This document shows, piece by piece, positions 9,386 through 18,497 of a stretch of 47,759 bases of DNA. Source of the stretch: Bolinopsis microptera (Eukaryota > Ctenophora > Tentaculata > Lobata > Bolinopsidae); contig NC_087075.1 in NCBI RefSeq assembly GCF_026151205.1, positions 16,278,252 to 16,326,010 of the forward strand, written 5' to 3'. Position 1 is the stretch's first letter. The number at the start of each line of letters is the position of its first letter. Position numbers and translations under genes: made by a program. The notes below the pieces were generated by a model. That model saw only the letters and a program-made list of their open reading frames with translations. It was not told where the DNA came from and made no database searches.

Positions 9386-9390
9386 ATATG

Positions 9391-10278
9391 TAGTGTAAAA
9401 TAAGATGGCACCAGACCAGTCCTCCCGAAGCGTACCGATGGTCTACAGTGCCTGCTCACAAAGGTGTACTCACAATATACACAACTCACTCAGTCGTTCT
9501 TAGCGACTGACAACCGCAATAACTCACAATATCAAAGTATTGAACTCTACGTTAATATAACAAATACGATATTCTAGTACCGTACACGGAATTAACAGAA
9601 AGGGATACTAAGGTGTTGATATCGAGAATATGAATCAAATGGGAAATATAAACTCGTTACGAACGTAGTAGGAACACTAAACTCTTAGAACTTGCACTTA
9701 CTCTGAATTGACTGAAACACGATCTTCGAGTATCGAAAGCTTACTAATTTACCCCACACGGAAATAGGTGAGGCAACTTTAATTTGAACGGTATAATGTG
9801 GTACAATTCGTTCCTACGCTAGTGTTGAACAAGGGAAACAGTTGAATCGATTAATAACGTTCGAAGATGAAATATACGGTTAATTTACAACAATTAACAA
9901 CTATAAACTGTGGCAATACGGGCCACGCCGGGTCGTTCCAGATCAGCGGTTAACACTTTGATTGAAAGTTAAACACGTCACCTAAAAAGCTTTTCCAGAA
10001 CTGACTCCAACGTGTCCAGAACTGCGTTAACGACCCGCGCCACGTGATACCACGTGGTCACCCACGTGGTACCGCGCGGCTCGGCCCAGCCATAAAACTA
10101 TAACAAAACCTACACGCCCGACTATCACGTGCCCTACTTTACACAAATCTCTAAACCTAACTACTCTAAATCTACACTAATCCTAACGGTTTTTCTTCAC
10201 TTAACTGCAATATCCTAACTAAAACATGACTACTAAACTCTGCTTAAAGATCGCTGCAACCAGCCTACACATTACACT
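9391..10278 (-). repeat. 3' LTR
   Basis: 888 bp with short inverted ends (TAGTGTAA / TTACACT on the + strand). It matches the 5' LTR at 17485-18372 without a difference that I can see. Three CACGTG boxes at 10041, 10051 and 10063 and a fourth near 10126 lie in it. Confidence 0.95.
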
Positions 10279-10292
10279 ATATCCCCCGGGAA
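10279..10292 (-). other. Candidate polypurine tract
   Basis: On the minus strand the bases just before the 3' LTR read CCCGGGGGATAT. This short G-rich run is the expected place for plus-strand priming but is a weak tract. Confidence 0.3.
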
Positions 10293-10885
10293 AATTTAAT
10301 CGATTTCGTCAATATCTCCAGGAGGTATTGACAAATTCGACTAAATCCCCCCCTACCTCCTAAATCCTAAATAAATCCTAAAACTCCCTCTAAAACAACA
10401 CCCTAAATAATATCCACAATAAATAATCAAATTACACGTACCCTAACGTGTCCAACTACAAGTATAACAATACTTAAATAAATTAAAATAAATAAATTAC
10501 GTAAAAAAATATCAACATCATCCCCGTGATACAACCACCCATAAAAAATTTCACGTGTTACAAATTTAAAAATCTATATAAAAATACGTGTTACAACACG
10601 TACCAATTCTGAATATTAAAAACTCTACGTGAAACAACTCACGTTTTACAAACAAACAAATTTATAAAACTTCGTGACAACCTTCACGTAATAAAATTCA
10701 AATATTTAAAACAAATTTATAAATACAACTTGCTACCCTACTAATTGTCCTTCTCCTAATTGTCCTTCCTACTCTTCTTACTCCTTCTGCCCTGCTGTTC
10801 TTTTGAAGTTGAAGTCCACCATCCCCCGTCTCTCCGTCCCCATACCCGTTGTTGCACACCCTCCACAACCATACTCATAACCAAG

Positions 10886-12186
10886 GTACCGTGCATCTAG
10901 TCACGAACCTAATTAATACAATGTTTTCGTACACCTAGTTACGAACATAACTTATATAATTATTTCCGTACACCTAGTTACGAACATACTTACACAATTT
11001 TTTCCGTACACCAAGTTACGAACATACTTACACAATTTTTTCCGTACACCTAGTTACGAACATAACTTACATAATTATTTCCGTACACCTAGTTACGAAC
11101 ATACTTACACAATTTTTTCCGTACTCCTAGTTACGAACATACAGGGTGGGCCAAAAGTCAGTACCCATACGTTGGGTCTTATACCTCCGCTGTGTTTTAT
11201 ATTTGAGAGTTGTTGCTTTGCAGGTGGCATACTGTACCTACTTGTTCGAGGATTCTGTCACCAAAATTTGAAAATTCGATTTTTGGGGGCCACACCCAAT
11301 CAACATTGAATTGCTTATACTGGTGTTTGTGAACATGTTAGAGACTCCGTTGTAACATATTGCAATAGGTCATTTAATCCGGAATATGATCTGAAAATAT
11401 GGTGCGAAACGGATTTAAAATGACGAAGTTATCAAGCAATTTGTTTATCTCGTTAGCAAAATTGATTGGGTACTCAATGATTACCCAATTACGGCACCAT
11501 AATTGGGCTTTCTACACGATTCCCATAATGAGGATCTAGCCTCAACCCAATTACATGATCACACGTAATGAACAAACTCGTTATGCTTCATATCTCGGTC
11601 ATCTGAGAAGCTAGAACTCTCATTTTTTCAGGACAAACGTAATTTAAATGGCCAAACACTATTCAATAAAATTTGGCTTGATCCGACTATCCAAACTATC
11701 AAATAAATGCAAAAATGAACCTTCATTTGAAAAAAATGAACACGAATAATTTTCGATTTGACAAATTCCTCGAACCAGTGGTAGTAGTAAGTCATACCAG
11801 AAAGAATTATTTCAATTGGGCACTCAGGGATTGAGCTATTAAGACCAACATATGGGTACTGACTTTTGGCCCACCCTGTACTTACATAATTATTTTCGTA
11901 CACCTAGTTACGAACATACTTACATAATTATTTTCGTACACCTAGTTACGAATATAATTTACCTAATTATTTCCGTACACCTAGTTACGAACATAATTTA
12001 CCTAATTATTTCCGTACACCTAGTTACGAACATAATTTACCTAATTATTTCCGTACACCTAGTTACGAACATAACTTGCATAATTATCTCCGTACACCTA
12101 GTTACGAACGTAACTTACACCATTATCTCCGTACACCTAGTTACGAACATAACTTGCATAATTATCTCCGTACACCTAGTTACGAA
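10886..12186. repeat. 38-39-bp minisatellite in the LTR element, split by a MITE
   Basis: Units built on TTTCCGTACACCTAGTTACG repeat at 38-39-bp spacing, about seven times from 10886 to 11141 and about eight times from 11880 to 12186. The left and right sets differ in sub-type (ACACAATTTTTT against CCTAATTATT). The array lies in the noncoding 3' region of the retrotransposon and is interrupted by the MITE at 11142-11878. Confidence 0.9.
11142..11878. mobile_element. 737-bp TA-flanked MITE (CAGGGTGGGCC ends)
   Basis: Terminal inverted repeats start CAGGGTGGGCCAAAAGTCAG, and TA lies on each side (11140-11141, 11879-11880). No transposase is encoded. A second copy in the opposite orientation lies at 38938-39704. 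TA duplication and these ends suggest a non-autonomous Tc1/mariner-type element. Confidence 0.85.
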
Positions 12187-12749
12187 ATTCACATAAGTCA
12201 CTGCAGACCGTCATATTTATAGATATGAAGTCAAATCATCTAGATCAAACCTTATCGGCACATGATAATTAAAAGTCAACTAAAGGCAAATCTAGGCATC
12301 AGGAGCGATGCTCTACCGGATTTAAAGGTGACTCCCACTCTACACTCTACTCTACTCCACGGTTCAACAACTAACTCAACCTCTCGCAAACTCTCCACTC
12401 TCCAGGGTAGCAAGCCCTCCTAAAAAAAACAACCAATCCTAACAAATTCAACTTCCATTCAGGACACCAGTCGAACCCTTAGCACGGCGGGAGATAAGAA
12501 ATGCAACGATGACCACCTTCCACAGGTTCCAGGTAGTCTGCAAAACATGACAACAATCGTCGTATCTGCCCGAGCAACAGGTAGTTAACTGGCATCCCGT
12601 GACCAGCAATCCTCTAAAACCCAAGTTTTCTCTTTACCCTCTTCAATACCACATTAATTCTTGACACCGGTCTATAGTAATCCGGCCTCTTTAACTGAGC
12701 TCTATTTCTTAGAGAACGTCCTCCACTGGCTACAGGCGTACTCTGTTCA
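12187..12749. other. Noncoding 3' region of the LTR element
   Basis: Sequence between the pol stop codon and the minisatellite. I find no reading frame with RT, RNase H or envelope-like features on the minus strand. Confidence 0.6.
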
Positions 12750-15700
12750 TCAGGTGAGTAAGCTAGTGTATTGTTGCTCTCCCCCCAGCTCGACAGGACT
12801 TAAACTATCCTCTATCTCGGATGTAGGTTCCTCAACCCCTCTGCTCCACCCGGGTGTGTAGAAAGATCCAAAACTTGATCCCGTCTCCTGGATCGGTGAT
12901 GAATTATGAACCGGAGTGTTAACCCTAGCTGGTGTCTGAGGGTCATGTTGGATTGAAATTTCCTGACTTTCCGTTCTGAAAGGAAGTGTGTACTCAGGTG
13001 ACAGAGGTTCGTCAGGAATTTCAATTCTCTGATTAGATACAGTGCTCTCTCGAATCACAGGATCCCTTCTCTCTACTTGCTCAGGCATCCACAACTCCTC
13101 GTCACTACTGCTATCACTATCATCACTATCACTTTTCACCGTATCTCTCCTCTTAGGCTCCGCAGTGTTGCTACTGCCATCACGAATCACTACTCTTTTC
13201 TCCGAGAATCTGTTCATCTCGTAGTGCTTCATTTTGCAAATGTTCGTGACCCTCTCCAACCCAGGTCCGTACTCCACCACATACAAGTGATCATTTAAAA
13301 CCTTCTTCACTCTACATGGACCCCTAAATCGCGGAGCAAACTTGTGTTTAGGACATTGCACTAACACGAAACAAAAGTCGTTCTCCTTAAAGTAAGGACC
13401 ATGCAGGTTTCGATCATGTTGCCTCTGTGCATACATGAAATCTACATTCGCACTCTCTCTCACTCTCTTGATGATTCTCTTCATTTCTCTGTGAAGCTCG
13501 TACGCCTCCCTGGCAGCGGCGTTCCTCGTATCTGGCTGATGCTGTTCTCTATCATCTAACATCAGATTCAACGGCAAGTTGACCTCTCTGCCAAATATCA
13601 TCTTGTGAGCAGAATACCCAGTTGTCCGGTTCTTCAAACAGTTCAAGGCAAATGTACTCTTGTCCAGGTACATATCCCAACAGTTCTCCTTTCCCCTAGG
13701 AATGCATGCACGCAACGCTCGATTTGTTCTCTTGTTGTTGCTCTCAGCACGGGCCGTGCTAGACGCTTTATACGATGTTCCGTGAGTTTTCTTGCACTCG
13801 AAAAACTCCCAAACTTCCTTGAAGAATTCTGCTCTGAACCCGGGGTGATTATCCACAATTAACTCCCGACATATTCCGAACTTTAATACCCAGTTCTTCA
13901 TTATTGCTGCTATATTCTCCTTAGCAGTTTGACTCTTGACTGGAACTGCTACCAGATAGTTTGACCAGGCATCAGAGATAGTAAGGATGTATCGATATCC
14001 TCGGGGTGTTCTCTGATTTGCTGTCGGTACTATGTGATCAATTACAATAGCGTCATTGAAATGGTGGAAGAACAAATGCTTTAACGGTGCTTTCAGATAA
14101 GCTTTCGGCTGCTTCATCTCTCCGCATCTTATGCACGCTTTGATGTACATTTTGAAGTCCTGCTCCATCTTTGGCCAGTAGAAGTACTCCCTGCATTTCT
14201 CCACACAGGTGCTGATTCCCGGATGACAGTTGGTGATGTTGTCGTGAAACAGTCTCATGATCTCCTCTTCATAGCTGTCTGGTATCACGATTAACTCTCT
14301 CGAATCTTTCTCTTTTCTTGAAACCCACTTTCTCTTCAAGAGTCCGCTTTCATCCACTTTCATCAAGCTAAATTGGGTCCAATAGGTGATCAATTTGTCT
14401 GGCACACGGTTCACCTGGATTGTTCCCCGGGCGCCGTCTTTAACCCACTGTTTCACAATTCTCAATATTGGATCCAAGTTCTGCTCCGTCTTGATCCTCT
14501 CCAAGTCTGGTAAGCATTGTTTGTCTGTTTCTGTATCTGGTACTGCAAAGGTAACCTGTTTACAATTACCCTGCTTCTTCTGAAGTCGTGGCATCACATT
14601 GATGCTGCAAATACATACAGGAACATCCTTCTCCTCGAGCTTTACCATCCTCACATGTCCATCATGGTTGTCCTCGAATAGGAGTTGTAGATCACTTTTC
14701 TCCGTTTGATCCCTCTTAGACACCTTGTTTTCATCATGCTCATCAATTATCATCTCATCTTTACTCTGCTCTCTCCATATCTCATTCTTCCAGCCATTTA
14801 TCCCCTCACTGATTACTATCTCGCTCCCACTACTACACACTCTGCTGTTCTCTCCCATACCGCACATGACGTTATCAGCGTCACTCACCACACCAGGACT
14901 CTTCTCAGAGGATTCACTAACGTCAGAAGCGTTGTGATCACGTGTAACATTACTAGAGGATTCACTAACGGAAGAAGCGTTGTGATCACGTGTAACATTA
15001 CTAGAGGATTCACCAACGGAAGAAGCGTTGTGATCACGTGTAACATTACTGAAGGATTCACTAACGGCTGAAGCGTTATGACTCGGAATGGTATTGACAC
15101 CCACAGACCTGGTAAACTCCTCTCCTCCCGATCTCTCATCTAGACTGACCTCTGTCTGGCACGATGCTTCCGCAAAACTCCTTCTGAATGGAACTCTGCT
15201 TCGTCTGTCCTCCTCAGCATTAGACATTGTCGCCTTTATTATGTTCAGCCCGTGACTCTCCAACAACTCATTCTGAGTCCATCTTTCACCACAGAACTTT
15301 TCTGCCTGACCCCTGTTCTCCTGAGCTTGTCTATCAATCGCAGTCCCTCTAACACCGATATCGTGACCTCTGATCCTCTGCACGCCGTGTATAAATTTCT
15401 TACCGCCTACAGGTTTCAATAGTGCGACGATCTTGTTCTTGCGGATCGTTATTGGCTCATCAGTAGAGTTAACACACTTTATCGGGACCAATCTTTTATC
15501 AGAGTGCACAACTGCATGAGCGAATGAAATGCCCGTGTCCCCAATACCTTGCTTGTACTGTGGCTTAATCACACCTTTAAAATTCACTCCTTTCGCCTGT
15601 AACTTTCCCCTGATGTACTGCACCGTGTTAGGAGGAATAATTGTGACCTTGCTACATCTAACTTTTATCTGCTGCTTGACATTCTCCGGCTTCTCCGTGA

Positions 15701-16070
15701 ATGGTACACTATCTCCATTAGTCAGCACCAGTCTGCACTTGCTGTAGTCCAGAGTTACCCTATTTGACCTCAAGAAATCATCTCCAATCAGGAATTCTGT
15801 GTCTAACAGATCAGTTACCACGAAGGTGTGTACAAATCTATTGCCAGCAACTACCACCTGTAGTTCTAACTCTCCCCTGATTTGTATCTTGTCTTGAGAA
15901 AATGACTTCAATGTCATGTTACACGGTCGGATCCCGCTCTCTAGTCTCAGTCCTCTCACAAAACCCGTGGACACAATACTCACAGCCGACCCGCTGTCAA
16001 CAAAAAGGTAGGCTGCCACTCCTCTGCAACTCCCAGCCACCAAGATGTGTTTCCAGTTCACCGCATTCAC
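12750..16070 (-). CDS. pol: Pol: retropepsin plus DD35E integrase, no RT
   Basis: 1,106 codons counted from a GTG. The frame is open upstream to about 16152, so the protein is probably made by -1 frameshifting from gag rather than from this codon. Residues 21-100 are a retropepsin: active-site DSG at 25-27 and FLIGDDFL at 93-100. A linker of several hundred residues follows, including about four 16-residue repeats (NVTRDHNASSVSES) rich in Ser, Asn and acidic residues. The integrase begins near 605 with an HHCC zinc site (HDNITNCHPG then CIRC). Its catalytic core has Asp near 676 (IDHIV), Asp near 739 (VDNHPGF) and Glu near 775, with exactly 35 residues between the last two. A GPY/F-like module (FAPRFRGPCRVKKV) and an acidic, Ser-rich tail end the protein. 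The RT and RNase H that should fill about 500 residues are absent both before and after integrase. The frame is intact. Confidence 0.92.
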   Translation of the reverse strand: MNAVNWKHILVAGSCRGVAAYLFVDSGSAVSIVSTGFVRGLRLESGIRPCNMTLKSFSQDKIQIRGELELQVVVAGNRFVHTFVVTDLLDTEFLIGDDFLRSNRVTLDYSKCRLVLTNGDSVPFTEKPENVKQQIKVRCSKVTIIPPNTVQYIRGKLQAKGVNFKGVIKPQYKQGIGDTGISFAHAVVHSDKRLVPIKCVNSTDEPITIRKNKIVALLKPVGGKKFIHGVQRIRGHDIGVRGTAIDRQAQENRGQAEKFCGERWTQNELLESHGLNIIKATMSNAEEDRRSRVPFRRSFAEASCQTEVSLDERSGGEEFTRSVGVNTIPSHNASAVSESFSNVTRDHNASSVGESSSNVTRDHNASSVSESSSNVTRDHNASDVSESSEKSPGVVSDADNVMCGMGENSRVCSSGSEIVISEGINGWKNEIWREQSKDEMIIDEHDENKVSKRDQTEKSDLQLLFEDNHDGHVRMVKLEEKDVPVCICSINVMPRLQKKQGNCKQVTFAVPDTETDKQCLPDLERIKTEQNLDPILRIVKQWVKDGARGTIQVNRVPDKLITYWTQFSLMKVDESGLLKRKWVSRKEKDSRELIVIPDSYEEEIMRLFHDNITNCHPGISTCVEKCREYFYWPKMEQDFKMYIKACIRCGEMKQPKAYLKAPLKHLFFHHFNDAIVIDHIVPTANQRTPRGYRYILTISDAWSNYLVAVPVKSQTAKENIAAIMKNWVLKFGICRELIVDNHPGFRAEFFKEVWEFFECKKTHGTSYKASSTARAESNNKRTNRALRACIPRGKENCWDMYLDKSTFALNCLKNRTTGYSAHKMIFGREVNLPLNLMLDDREQHQPDTRNAAAREAYELHREMKRIIKRVRESANVDFMYAQRQHDRNLHGPYFKENDFCFVLVQCPKHKFAPRFRGPCRVKKVLNDHLYVVEYGPGLERVTNICKMKHYEMNRFSEKRVVIRDGSSNTAEPKRRDTVKSDSDDSDSSSDEELWMPEQVERRDPVIRESTVSNQRIEIPDEPLSPEYTLPFRTESQEISIQHDPQTPARVNTPVHNSSPIQETGSSFGSFYTPGWSRGVEEPTSEIEDSLSPVELGGEQQYTSLLT
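14923..15080 (-). repeat. 48-bp in-frame repeat in pol linker
   Basis: About four units of 48 bp, each encoding 16 residues around NVTRDHNAS. They lie where the RT domain would be in a standard gypsy pol. Being a multiple of three, the repeat keeps the frame open. Confidence 0.85.
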
Positions 16071-16080
16071 CTCCTTCTGC

Positions 16081-16145
16081 TTCCCAGATGATTTTAATTG
16101 CGACTGATGGGAAATGAATTTTGTCCAGTCGCACGCCCGTTTAAA
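16081..16145 (-). promoter_or_regulatory. -1 ribosomal frameshift signal between gag and pol
   Basis: On the minus strand the heptamer TTTAAAC (16139-16145) sits in gag frame as T-TTA-AAC. After a 5-nt spacer, TGCGACTG (16126-16133) can pair with CAGTCGCA (16099-16106), giving a perfect 8-bp stem. The loop segment TTCCCA (16108-16113) can pair with TGGGAA (16081-16086) downstream, which completes an H-type pseudoknot that spans the gag stop codon at 16094. A slip by -1 enters the pol frame, which is open through this region. The arrangement is the standard form of a -1 frameshift site. Function is inferred. Confidence 0.8.
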
Positions 16146-17458
16146 TGGTCTCTCTGCATTCCATGCTGTTCATTCACTGTGGGTCTGTACTGCCCTCCTC
16201 GTTCTCCAGATTGCCCTCTGTTGACGTTACAGAATCTCTGAATGTGTCCCTCACCGTGACAATTATAACAAATCAATGGCCTACGACTCTCTCCTCTACT
16301 CGCACCTCCACTCGCCCCTCTACTCGCACCTCTACTCGCACCTCTGCTACTCCGCTCAACCGGACTCACTCTACTCCTACAAACACTGGCAACATGCCCT
16401 TTACCTCCACACAGCTGGCACACAATATTGCTCCAACACGAGTCAGCCTTGTGACCCTTCTTCCCACACATTTGACAGTCATTCTCATCCTCTTCTTTCT
16501 CACCTTGCCTGCCAACACCATAAGTAGGTGCCCGGAATTCCAGTGTATTTATTGGATCACTGTCAAGCTCTCCCTCTACTGCCTTGGATATGTGTTCCTC
16601 CTGTACAGCTAAACGGATCACACTATCAAAATCCTCTGTCTCCGTGTTCATCTGAAGGAGCCGTCTTTTAATAGCAGGGTCTCTCACGCCCTGTATCAAC
16701 ACAGTGATACCTGCACTCTCTCTCTCCACAGCTCTCGGGTATATCTTCTCAGCAGTGTCCTGTATTCTCTCTGCGAACTGCTCCACGCTCTCTAACGCTT
16801 CCTGTCTCATCTTGTGAAACGTTGTTCTCATAATTCTCGCATCAGTAGCGGGATATAGCTCTCGTTTCACCGCACTGATCAGCATTTTCACGTCACCTCT
16901 CTCCTCACTCAACAGCCGAATGTTCTTGACTTTCTTGAACTTTGCATCGTCTTCTATCTGATTTGCAAGCCTCAAGTCTAGATTGTCCTTTACTCCGCAT
17001 AACAGGACCCATTGCTCGAATCTCTGTAAGAATGTACAAAAGTCATCATTCTTCCTATACCTAGGCGCCTTACACTTCATCGTGTATACTCCCTTATCTC
17101 TCTCTGTATTTCCGGGTTGCAAATCATCACTCTCAGTAGTTCTCACTCTTTCTTGAAATAAGTTGCTCGTGTTCTCCAACTTTACTTCTTGATCCCTCAT
17201 CAATCCCTCTCGCTCAAGTTCTGCGTCCTGTCTCCACTTGATCATATCTCTCTCCAACTCTCTCACTCTGCTCAAACACTCCTCTCTCTTCTCGCTCAAA
17301 TCAAACAACTCCACTTTTCTCTCTTTTATCTCCGTCTCTTTCTCACTTGTGTCCCAGGACTTCATTTCCAATTTCACCTCCACAATCTGATCCACAATCC
17401 GTTTTTCCTCCTCTACTAGTTCCTTCATCTCCTGCTCCATGTTTGTGAGTCCAGACAT
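16094..17458 (-). CDS. gag: Gag polyprotein with three CCHC zinc knuckles
   Basis: 454 residues from ATG, starting 26 bp inside the 5' LTR boundary. The first ~110 residues are charged heptad-rich sequence likely to form a coiled coil. Residues about 130-300 look like a retrotransposon capsid: KAPRYRKNDDFCTFLQRFEQW, then LKREL-type helical sequence and the phrase VEQFAERIQDTA. Three nucleocapsid knuckles follow: CQMCGKKGHKADSC, CQLCGGKGHVASVC and CYNCHGEGHIQRFC, all C-x2-C-x4-H-x4-C. A (RGAS) repeat separates the second and third. The role is to package element RNA in virus-like particles. The last ~58 bp overlap the pol frame and contain the slip site. No interruption is seen. Confidence 0.93.
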   Translation of the reverse strand: MSGLTNMEQEMKELVEEEKRIVDQIVEVKLEMKSWDTSEKETEIKERKVELFDLSEKREECLSRVRELERDMIKWRQDAELEREGLMRDQEVKLENTSNLFQERVRTTESDDLQPGNTERDKGVYTMKCKAPRYRKNDDFCTFLQRFEQWVLLCGVKDNLDLRLANQIEDDAKFKKVKNIRLLSEERGDVKMLISAVKRELYPATDARIMRTTFHKMRQEALESVEQFAERIQDTAEKIYPRAVERESAGITVLIQGVRDPAIKRRLLQMNTETEDFDSVIRLAVQEEHISKAVEGELDSDPINTLEFRAPTYGVGRQGEKEEDENDCQMCGKKGHKADSCWSNIVCQLCGGKGHVASVCRSRVSPVERSSRGASRGASRGASGGASRGESRRPLICYNCHGEGHIQRFCNVNRGQSGERGGQYRPTVNEQHGMQRDHLNGRATGQNSFPISRN

Positions 17459-17461
17459 AGT

Positions 17462-17484
17462 ACCACTTTCCTAGGTTCTCCAGA
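17462..17484 (-). other. Leader with candidate primer-binding site
   Basis: Two bases after the 5' LTR the minus strand reads TGGAGAACCTAGGAAAG. A primer-binding site normally starts TGG because tRNAs end in CCA. I cannot assign the tRNA. The leader is very short (26 bp to the gag ATG). Confidence 0.45.
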
Positions 17485-18372
17485 TAGTGTAAAATAAGAT
17501 GGCACCAGACCAGTCCTCCCGAAGCGTACCGATGGTCTACAGTGCCTGCTCACAAAGGTGTACTCACAATATACACAACTCACTCAGTCGTTCTTAGCGA
17601 CTGACAACCGCAATAACTCACAATATCAAAGTATTGAACTCTACGTTAATATAACAAATACGATATTCTAGTACCGTACACGGAATTAACAGAAAGGGAT
17701 ACTAAGGTGTTGATATCGAGAATATGAATCAAATGGGAAATATAAACTCGTTACGAACGTAGTAGGAACACTAAACTCTTAGAACTTGCACTTACTCTGA
17801 ATTGACTGAAACACGATCTTCGAGTATCGAAAGCTTACTAATTTACCCCACACGGAAATAGGTGAGGCAACTTTAATTTGAACGGTATAATGTGGTACAA
17901 TTCGTTCCTACGCTAGTGTTGAACAAGGGAAACAGTTGAATCGATTAATAACGTTCGAAGATGAAATATACGGTTAATTTACAACAATTAACAACTATAA
18001 ACTGTGGCAATACGGGCCACGCCGGGTCGTTCCAGATCAGCGGTTAACACTTTGATTGAAAGTTAAACACGTCACCTAAAAAGCTTTTCCAGAACTGACT
18101 CCAACGTGTCCAGAACTGCGTTAACGACCCGCGCCACGTGATACCACGTGGTCACCCACGTGGTACCGCGCGGCTCGGCCCAGCCATAAAACTATAACAA
18201 AACCTACACGCCCGACTATCACGTGCCCTACTTTACACAAATCTCTAAACCTAACTACTCTAAATCTACACTAATCCTAACGGTTTTTCTTCACTTAACT
18301 GCAATATCCTAACTAAAACATGACTACTAAACTCTGCTTAAAGATCGCTGCAACCAGCCTACACATTACACT
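17485..18372 (-). repeat. 5' LTR
   Basis: 888 bp, the promoter copy for the minus-strand element. It carries the same cluster of CACGTG boxes as the 3' LTR, here around 18135-18165 and near 18220. The ATATG target duplication follows at 18373. Confidence 0.95.
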
Positions 18373-18497
18373 ATATGAATTTATAAATACATACTGTTAT
18401 GAACTTAATTTACTGAAATAAACTTAATCTACTTAATCGCTGTAATAAAGTAATGAAAATTGAACACAAACAAATGTTCGGCAGTAGCAATGCTTAA

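What the first reader, a model, noticed from the sequence alone, without database searches (positions are those of the whole stretch)
12750..16152. Young LTR retrotransposon whose pol encodes protease and integrase but no reverse transcriptase or RNase H
Seen: the pol frame is intact, with retropepsin DSG at residue 25, an HHCC zinc site near 608 and a DD35E integrase core near 676-775. No RT boxes occur in the ~500 residues between or in the tail. The rest of the element has no other RT frame. The LTRs look identical and the 5-bp target duplication is exact, so this copy inserted recently. Known: non-autonomous LTR elements (LARD, TRIM, BARE2-type) usually lose more coding sequence, and Gmr1-like elements move integrase ahead of RT rather than drop RT. 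Inference: RT is supplied in trans while gag, protease and integrase stay in cis, or the family splits its polymerase onto a partner element. A low-complexity 48-bp repeat sits where RT should be.
Basis: partly seen in the sequence, partly recalled or inferred. Interest (0 to 1): 0.88.

Follow-up and report, generated by a model that had tools for sequence, protein, structure and literature searches.

The report
RT-less retrotransposon carried by a partner
A jumping element in a comb-jelly-like genome has neatly lost the gene for copying RNA into DNA yet keeps spreading, most likely by borrowing the enzyme from complete sister elements that share its ends, and related copies in another genome show the same old loss.

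Summary
In detail: the 9.0-kb LTR element at 9391-18373 has an open pol with protease and DD35E integrase and no RT or RNase H. It is not a lone accident. In this genome (264.65 Mb, probably a ctenophore) 15 loci carry the same in-frame RT/RNase H deletion junction, and 8 loci match only up to that point, as RT-bearing copies must. The RT-bearing sisters share Gag, primer site, polypurine tract, LTR termini and 4-bp target duplications, so they are the obvious source of RT in trans (inferred). Only 2 of 15 RT-less loci keep integrase; 6 show a second shared in-frame deletion and 7 were not resolved. The window copy is a mosaic: its protease-junction block belongs to the RT-less lineage, its integrase is up to 99% identical to RT-bearing sisters. 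Proteins from another, unnamed host share the RT junction. In the junction-linked protease block all 11 RT-less rows form one clade (99/97), and grouping by host is rejected (AU p 0.0006-0.0007): one loss, older than the split of the two element pools. Closest known kind: wheat "semi-autonomous" partners (Cereba/Quinta, Wilma/Sabrina). New variant of a known kind.

The parts
9391..18373 (-). whole LTR retrotransposon (RT-less, integrase-bearing copy)
   Evidence: identical LTRs, 4-bp target duplication
9387..9390 (.). target-site duplication TATG, left copy
18374..18377 (.). target-site duplication TATG, right copy
17485..18373 (-). 5' LTR (889 bp, TAGTGTAA...TTACACTA)
   Evidence: 100% identical to the other LTR
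9391..10279 (-). 3' LTR (889 bp)
17468..17484 (-). primer binding site (TCTGGAGAACCTAGGAA, starting right after the LTR)
   Evidence: same 17 bases in the 7 other copies whose 5' LTR was read
10280..10290 (-). polypurine tract CCCGGGGGATA
   Evidence: present in the 7 other copies whose LTR pair was read
16097..17470 (-). gag frame, 458 codons stop to stop, CCHC zinc knuckles
   Evidence: zinc knuckle under the Pfam cut-off; closest four database relatives 77-80% identical; window vs RT-bearing L045: 25 synonymous, 4 nonsynonymous differences over 828 bases
12753..16169 (-). pol frame, 1139 codons, overlaps gag by 73 bases in another frame
15768..16022 (-). retropepsin-like protease (DSG at pol residues 58-60)
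   Evidence: Pfam PF13975 E 4e-4, under its cut-off
15202..15203 (-). RT/RNase H deletion junction (CAGAC|GAAGCAGA)
   Evidence: compared with RT-bearing L045/L046; shared by 15 loci
14490..15201 (-). linker with 48-bp repeats (14907-15081); switch in identity near 15080-14980
13227..14303 (-). integrase: H2C2 zinc domain, D711, D773, E809, C-terminal part
12753..13118 (-). C-terminal tail of pol, cut short by a frame change
10872..12193 (-). 39-bp minisatellite in the 3' untranslated part, also in sister copies
11142..11878 (.). nested 737-bp insertion with inverted ends CAGGGTGGGCCAAAAGTCAGTACCCAT, flanked by TA; no match in the 8 copies compared

Best explanation
It is a recently inserted member of an old, semi-autonomous Ty3/Gypsy lineage. 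One in-frame deletion, probably a reverse-transcription template jump at a 3-base match, removed RT and RNase H from an ancestor (shown: shared junction; inferred: mechanism). The lineage kept LTR ends, primer site, polypurine tract, Gag and protease (shown). Its RNA is packaged and copied by RT supplied by RT-bearing sisters in the same genome (inferred). Co-packaging lets the two lineages recombine: the window copy carries the RT-less protease-junction block next to an integrase of the RT-bearing kind (mosaic shown; direction of transfer inferred). Most resolved RT-less copies lack integrase, so integrase too must usually come in trans (inferred).
For: 15 loci span the deletion junction at 94-100% identity (14 over all 351 bases, one over 18-343); 8 loci match only the left part, 9 only the right part. 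None of the 15 RT matches lies at an RT-less locus (nearest 77 kb away). RT-less copies have different 4-bp target duplications (element strand: window CATA, L039 GTAT, L041 GAGG, L042 CCCC, L043 TTAA), so they inserted independently; with a shared junction they did so already lacking RT. LTR pairs: window and L042 100%, L039 99.9%, L041 99.6%. RT-bearing L045 has 100% identical LTRs, the same primer site and polypurine tract, and an open frame through protease, RT and RNase H. Mosaic: identity to L045/L046 is 97-100% in integrase but 77-91% in the steps from 15972 to 15372. Another host: P0009, P0015-P0018 and P0030 carry the same junction. Protease-block tree: the 11 RT-less rows are one clade (99/97); host clades rejected, p-AU 0.00057 and 0.00069; 9 columns separate RT status, 0 separate host. 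In the tail the RT label needs 5 changes, host 1. dN/dS 0.21-0.26 between the lineages' protease blocks.
Against: No expression, particle or new-insertion data; RT in trans is inferred. No complete living helper is shown: of 8 RT-bearing loci three were read across pol. L045 and L046 are open through RT but break at or before integrase, L045's gag frame is broken too, and L047 has no pol frame of 250 codons. L044, the other RT-less integrase-bearing copy, has no target duplication and a frame break before integrase. L058, an RT-less copy read for 801 bases, has a frame break in the protease region. LTR sequence does not track RT status: the window's LTR differs strongly from L045/L046 (72% at its start where matched, no match in several steps), but so does the start of RT-less L041 and L042, so shared promoter control is unproven. 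L039 and L043 are only 85-95% like the window in parts of gag and protease. Within-lineage dN/dS rests on few changes (0 to 1.1).
Confidence: 0.82

Rival explanations
1. The RT-less, integrase-bearing structure is the old state of the lineage and integrase was lost later in other copies; the near identity of integrase to RT-bearing sisters is due to later exchange. (Differs from the best explanation only in the order of events.)
For: The other host's RT-less proteins have a different, larger integrase deletion, compatible with two separate losses from an integrase-bearing ancestor. Window and L044 tails are sisters (99/99).
Against: The larger deletion encloses the smaller one, so one loss that later grew explains it as well. 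Tails of window and L044 group with RT-bearing copies (87/88, drawn open), integrase is up to 99% identical to them, and the identity switches in the linker near 15080-14980.
Confidence: 0.12
2. A reciprocal two-component system: RT-less copies supply Gag, protease and integrase while RT-bearing copies, with broken integrase, supply RT.
For: L045 and L046 have open protease-RT-RNase H and a broken integrase frame, whereas the window has an open integrase.
Against: The breaks are at different places, as in ordinary decay; a further RT-bearing copy (L057, 801 bases) is open through the linker up to the start of the integrase part; only 2 of 15 RT-less loci have integrase, and one of these is broken.
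Confidence: 0.06
3. RT is removed by splicing of the genomic RNA, and RT-less copies are reverse-transcribed spliced RNA that arise again and again.
For: The deletion is exact and in frame.
Against: The deleted block has no GT...AG ends in RT-bearing copies; the ends fit a 3-base match with two later substitutions. The linked protease block is a diverged clade, not scattered among RT-bearing rows.
Confidence: 0.02
4. A lone post-insertion deletion or an assembly join.
For: None found.
Against: 15 loci share the junction and so do proteins from another host.
Confidence: 0.01

Closest known systems
RLG_Cereba / RLG_Quinta of wheat (PMC11302176: abstract and passages seen)
   Same: Autonomous Gypsy element and a derived partner that keeps Gag, LTR ends, primer site and polypurine tract but lacks RT and integrase; old partnership across species; recombination between lineages.
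   Different: [quoted passage not shown] here protease is kept in frame, and in two copies integrase. Plant centromeres versus a probable animal genome. Here the deletion junction itself is traceable across hosts.
[quoted passage not shown]
   Same: 'Semi-autonomous' elements that encode Gag and depend on a partner's RT and integrase; co-evolution over millions of years; LTR exchange.
   Different: There little sequence is left in common, or the coding part is decayed; here frames are open in several copies and two precise in-frame deletions are seen.
Mouse IAP type I-delta-1 (PMC7472028: passages seen; that it makes a gag-pol fusion is recalled)
   Same: Animal LTR element with a 1.9-kb deletion in gag-pol that is mobile as a non-autonomous form.
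   Different: Different deletion; described in mouse strains (passages), whereas here the junction is found in two hosts.
BARE2 of barley (mentioned in PMC9744471 section 3.2; otherwise recalled)
   Same: Partly coding relative that depends on an autonomous sister.
   Different: BARE2's Gag is disrupted and the rest intact; here Gag and protease are kept and RT is lost.

Membership tests
Ty3/Gypsy LTR retrotransposon | LTRs, primer site, polypurine tract, short target duplication | tested here: met
Ty3/Gypsy LTR retrotransposon | Gag with CCHC knuckles, aspartic protease, Gypsy-type integrase | tested here: met
   protease, rve and CCHC matches are under the curated Pfam cut-offs, Integrase_H2C2 is over
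Ty3/Gypsy LTR retrotransposon | pol order protease-RT-RNase H-integrase | tested here: not met
   not in this copy; met by RT-bearing L045, L046 and P0001
Semi-autonomous LTR partner (Quinta/Sabrina type) | derived from a full-length family present in the same genome, sharing LTR termini, primer site and polypurine tract | tested here: met
Semi-autonomous LTR partner (Quinta/Sabrina type) | independent recent insertions while lacking RT | tested here: met
   different 4-bp duplications and 99.6-100% LTR pairs in window, L039, L041, L042
Semi-autonomous LTR partner (Quinta/Sabrina type) | RT and integrase supplied in trans by the partner | not testable with these tools
   inference only; no RT-bearing copy with all frames open was seen
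LARD / TRIM | no coding capacity between the LTRs (definition recalled) | tested here: not met
   open gag and pol frames
Gmr1-like Gypsy | integrase placed before RT (definition from the finding) | tested here: not met
   no RT in the element; sisters have RT before integrase
Ginger-type DNA transposon | Gypsy-like integrase between terminal inverted repeats, no LTRs or Gag (definition recalled) | tested here: not met
   LTRs and gag present

The most novel reading that the evidence does not exclude
The RT-less lineage is not just a parasite but a stable, selected half of a two-part element: it supplies extra Gag and protease (and at times integrase) to RT-bearing sisters whose own integrase is failing, with reverse-transcription recombination repeatedly swapping modules, a partnership kept since before the hosts separated.
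Probability: 0.1. Interest if true: 0.8.

Novelty: new variant of a known kind. Interest (0 to 1): 0.52.

Why it matters
It gives a case in a probable ctenophore of a long-lived LTR-retrotransposon partnership like those described in wheat, with the founding deletion readable base by base. Because both lineages, their recombinants and a second host's versions exist, one can ask which parts stay tied to the deletion and which are exchanged freely, and whether keeping Gag and protease is selected.

Tried and rejected
Rejected: assembly join and lone deletion; splicing; Gmr1-like order; LARD/TRIM; hidden RT in another frame. Nothing came of Rfam at gathering scores, tRNAs in the window or Pfam on the extra frame of L044. 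P0005 (753 residues, no RT domain) was set aside: it begins inside the linker, so it says nothing about RT. Ten paper searches listed no report of RT-less LTR elements in ctenophores; only CC-licensed PMC papers are held, so this is no proof of absence. My early reading that 13 of 15 RT-less copies share a clean integrase deletion was cut back: one search shows the full integrase-deletion junction at 6 loci and only its left side at a seventh (C10:12826735); 6 further RT-less loci match neither integrase nor that junction and were not read. I had no rate and give no absolute dates.

Rows dropped or not used: L047 had no pol frame of 250 codons and is in no tree; the protease tree used 12 of the 43 database proteins (P0030 and others not); L039 fell out of the tail tree because its motif did not match; L039, L043 and L047 fell out of the full-protease dN/dS for the same reason.
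Full report
What is there. The window is part of a 264.65-Mb eukaryotic genome in 232 contigs. The only named organism among hits to this pol above 30% identity is Mnemiopsis leidyi (P0007, P0012), so a ctenophore is likely; that is inference. On the minus strand, 9391-18373 is a complete LTR element: LTRs of 889 bp, identical, a primer site right after the 5' LTR, a polypurine tract before the 3' LTR, and a 4-bp duplication TATG.

Coding. Gag (458 codons, zinc knuckles) overlaps pol (1139 codons) by 73 bases in another frame. Pol holds a retropepsin-like domain with DSG, a long linker with 48-bp repeats, H2C2 and a DD35E core (D711, D773, E809), and a serine-rich tail. Protease, rve and CCHC matches are below the Pfam cut-offs, but integrase matches the Ty3 and PFV structures' sequences. 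No RT or RNase H is found. About 45 residues at the end of the tail are lost by a frame change.

Sisters with RT. Of 29 proteins found with pol, 22 carry the RT domain PF00078. In the same genome an RT query finds 15 matches: 7 loci over essentially the whole query at 97-100%, two pieces that I take as one interrupted copy, one partial match, one locus at 83% and four at 70-71%. L045 and L046 show protease, RT, RNase H, linker with the same repeats, and integrase, with gag before them (L046 read only in part). The repeat is therefore not a replacement for RT.

The junction. RT-bearing copies read ...CCAGAC-TGAAGGAG at the left and ...GACTTTT-TGAGCAGATTTCC at the right. RT-less copies read ...ACAGAC-GAAGCAGAGTTCC, with small variants. 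The loss is in frame, has no GT...AG ends and fits a jump at the shared bases TGA followed by two substitutions. A 351-base query over the junction finds 32 matches: 15 loci across it (on 10 contigs), 8 left parts, 9 right parts. Of the 15, integrase (1201 bases) is found at 2, the window and C5:3070446. Six others have a second shared deletion that removes integrase in frame; in the four read, its ends share the 7 bases GGAGAGA. One has only the left side of that point and six were not resolved. The four integrase-less copies read (L039, L041, L042, L043) have open pol frames of 682-805 codons.

Independent, recent insertions. Target duplications differ between RT-less copies (CATA, GTAT, GAGG, CCCC, TTAA on the element strand) and LTR pairs are 99.6-100% identical in window, L039, L041 and L042. 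L043's pair is 98% and 88% in two pieces; L044's pair is 99.0% over 730 columns but it has no duplication. RT-bearing L045 also has identical LTRs. Both kinds have thus moved recently; no rate is available for dates.

Mosaic. In 150-base steps every 100 bases the window is 96-100% like RT-less L041 and L042 from the start of gag through the junction; L039 and L043 drop to 85-95% in parts of gag and protease. Against RT-bearing L045/L046 it is 77-91% in the steps from 15972 to 15372 and 97-100% throughout integrase; in gag it is 87-93% in part of the first half and mostly 98-100% in the second. The switch in the linker lies near 15080-14980. LTR sequence does not follow RT status: RT-less L041 and L042 share with L045 the divergent LTR start. 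Arabidopsis LTR elements recombine pairwise in bursts (PMC5668417, abstract seen).

Age. Proteins P0009, P0015-P0018 and P0030 (614-759 residues), from one or more unnamed hosts, carry the same RT junction and a different, larger integrase deletion. They do not seem to come from this assembly: one search scored all its 32 candidates, reached 76-79% identical sequence in RT-bearing copies, and found no RT-less copy below 94%. In the protease half next to the junction (188 columns, 20 rows) all 11 RT-less rows form one clade (99/97). Forcing either host's rows together is rejected (p-AU 0.00057 and 0.00069). Nine columns separate the RT-less rows from the 4 closest RT-bearing rows and none separates hosts. 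Seen against five more distant RT-bearing rows, the RT-bearing state is shared by all five at 4 of the 9 columns and by three of five at 2; one column is mixed, one fits neither state, and at one (91) three of the five share the RT-less state. So the RT-less state is mostly the derived one. Cross-host identity is alike in both lineages (82% RT-less, 85% RT-bearing), as expected if they diverged with the hosts; transfer between hosts is not excluded. In the protease half away from the junction the RT label needs 3 changes, and in the tail 5 against 1 for host. P0015 looks like a recombinant in the other host too: its protease start groups with RT-bearing P0022 (98/95). So one old deletion stays tied to its flank while the rest is exchanged within each host.

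Selection. Between lineages the protease block has dN/dS 0.21-0.26; gag of window against L045 has 25 synonymous and 4 nonsynonymous differences over 828 bases. Within the RT-less lineage numbers are small and ratios range from 0 to 1.1. This fits retained use of Gag and protease but does not prove it.

How it works. Best reading: RNA of RT-less copies is packaged with RT made by RT-bearing sisters and integrated with partner integrase, or now and then its own when recombination restores that module. Shown: structure, shared junction, independent insertions, mosaic, single clade. Inferred: supply in trans, direction of exchange, template jump. Weak point: of 8 RT-bearing loci three were read across pol. 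L045 and L046 break at or before integrase, L045's gag is also broken, and L047 has no long pol frame. A fourth was read for 801 bases and is open there (L057). One RT-less copy read in part has a break in the protease region (L058).

What is known. Wheat Cereba/Quinta (PMC11302176, abstract and passages) and Wilma/Sabrina/WHAM (PMC9744471, abstract and three sections) are the closest kinds: partners that keep Gag and lack RT and integrase. Mouse IAP I-delta-1 (PMC7472028, passages) is an animal deletion form. My ten paper searches listed no title or abstract on an RT-less family in ctenophores, or on one that keeps protease and integrase while lacking RT; the library is partial and I did not read the listed papers beyond those named. 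I rate it a new variant of a known kind.

Noticed in passing
L044:2006-3598 (minus strand; C5:3067705-3069297): A 531-codon frame sits between integrase and the 3' LTR of the other RT-less integrase-bearing copy; no Pfam match over cut-off. Its last 213 residues are 71% identical to a tail fused to protease-RT in P0022 from another host. Matching DNA lies 1.1-1.6 kb before related LTRs on C14 and C7 (three places), with fragments clustered on C11. It may be a captured third gene of a sub-family.
   Followed up: partly
window 11142-11878: A 737-bp insertion without a long frame, with inverted ends (mariner-like by recall) and TA flanks, is nested in the element's 39-bp minisatellite; no match in the 8 copies compared, one of them incomplete.
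   Followed up: partly
L040 (C10:16362900-16369900): Three LTR-like copies at 2.6-2.8 kb spacing with none of the element's proteins found between them.
   Followed up: no
L047 (C3:226800-236400): An RT-bearing copy with 99.4% identical LTRs and integrase DNA 96% like the window, whose proteins align only in broken pieces, some at 37-46% identity.
   Followed up: no
linker of L042, L044 and others: The number of 48-bp repeats in the linker varies between copies; L044 has many more than the window.
   Followed up: no
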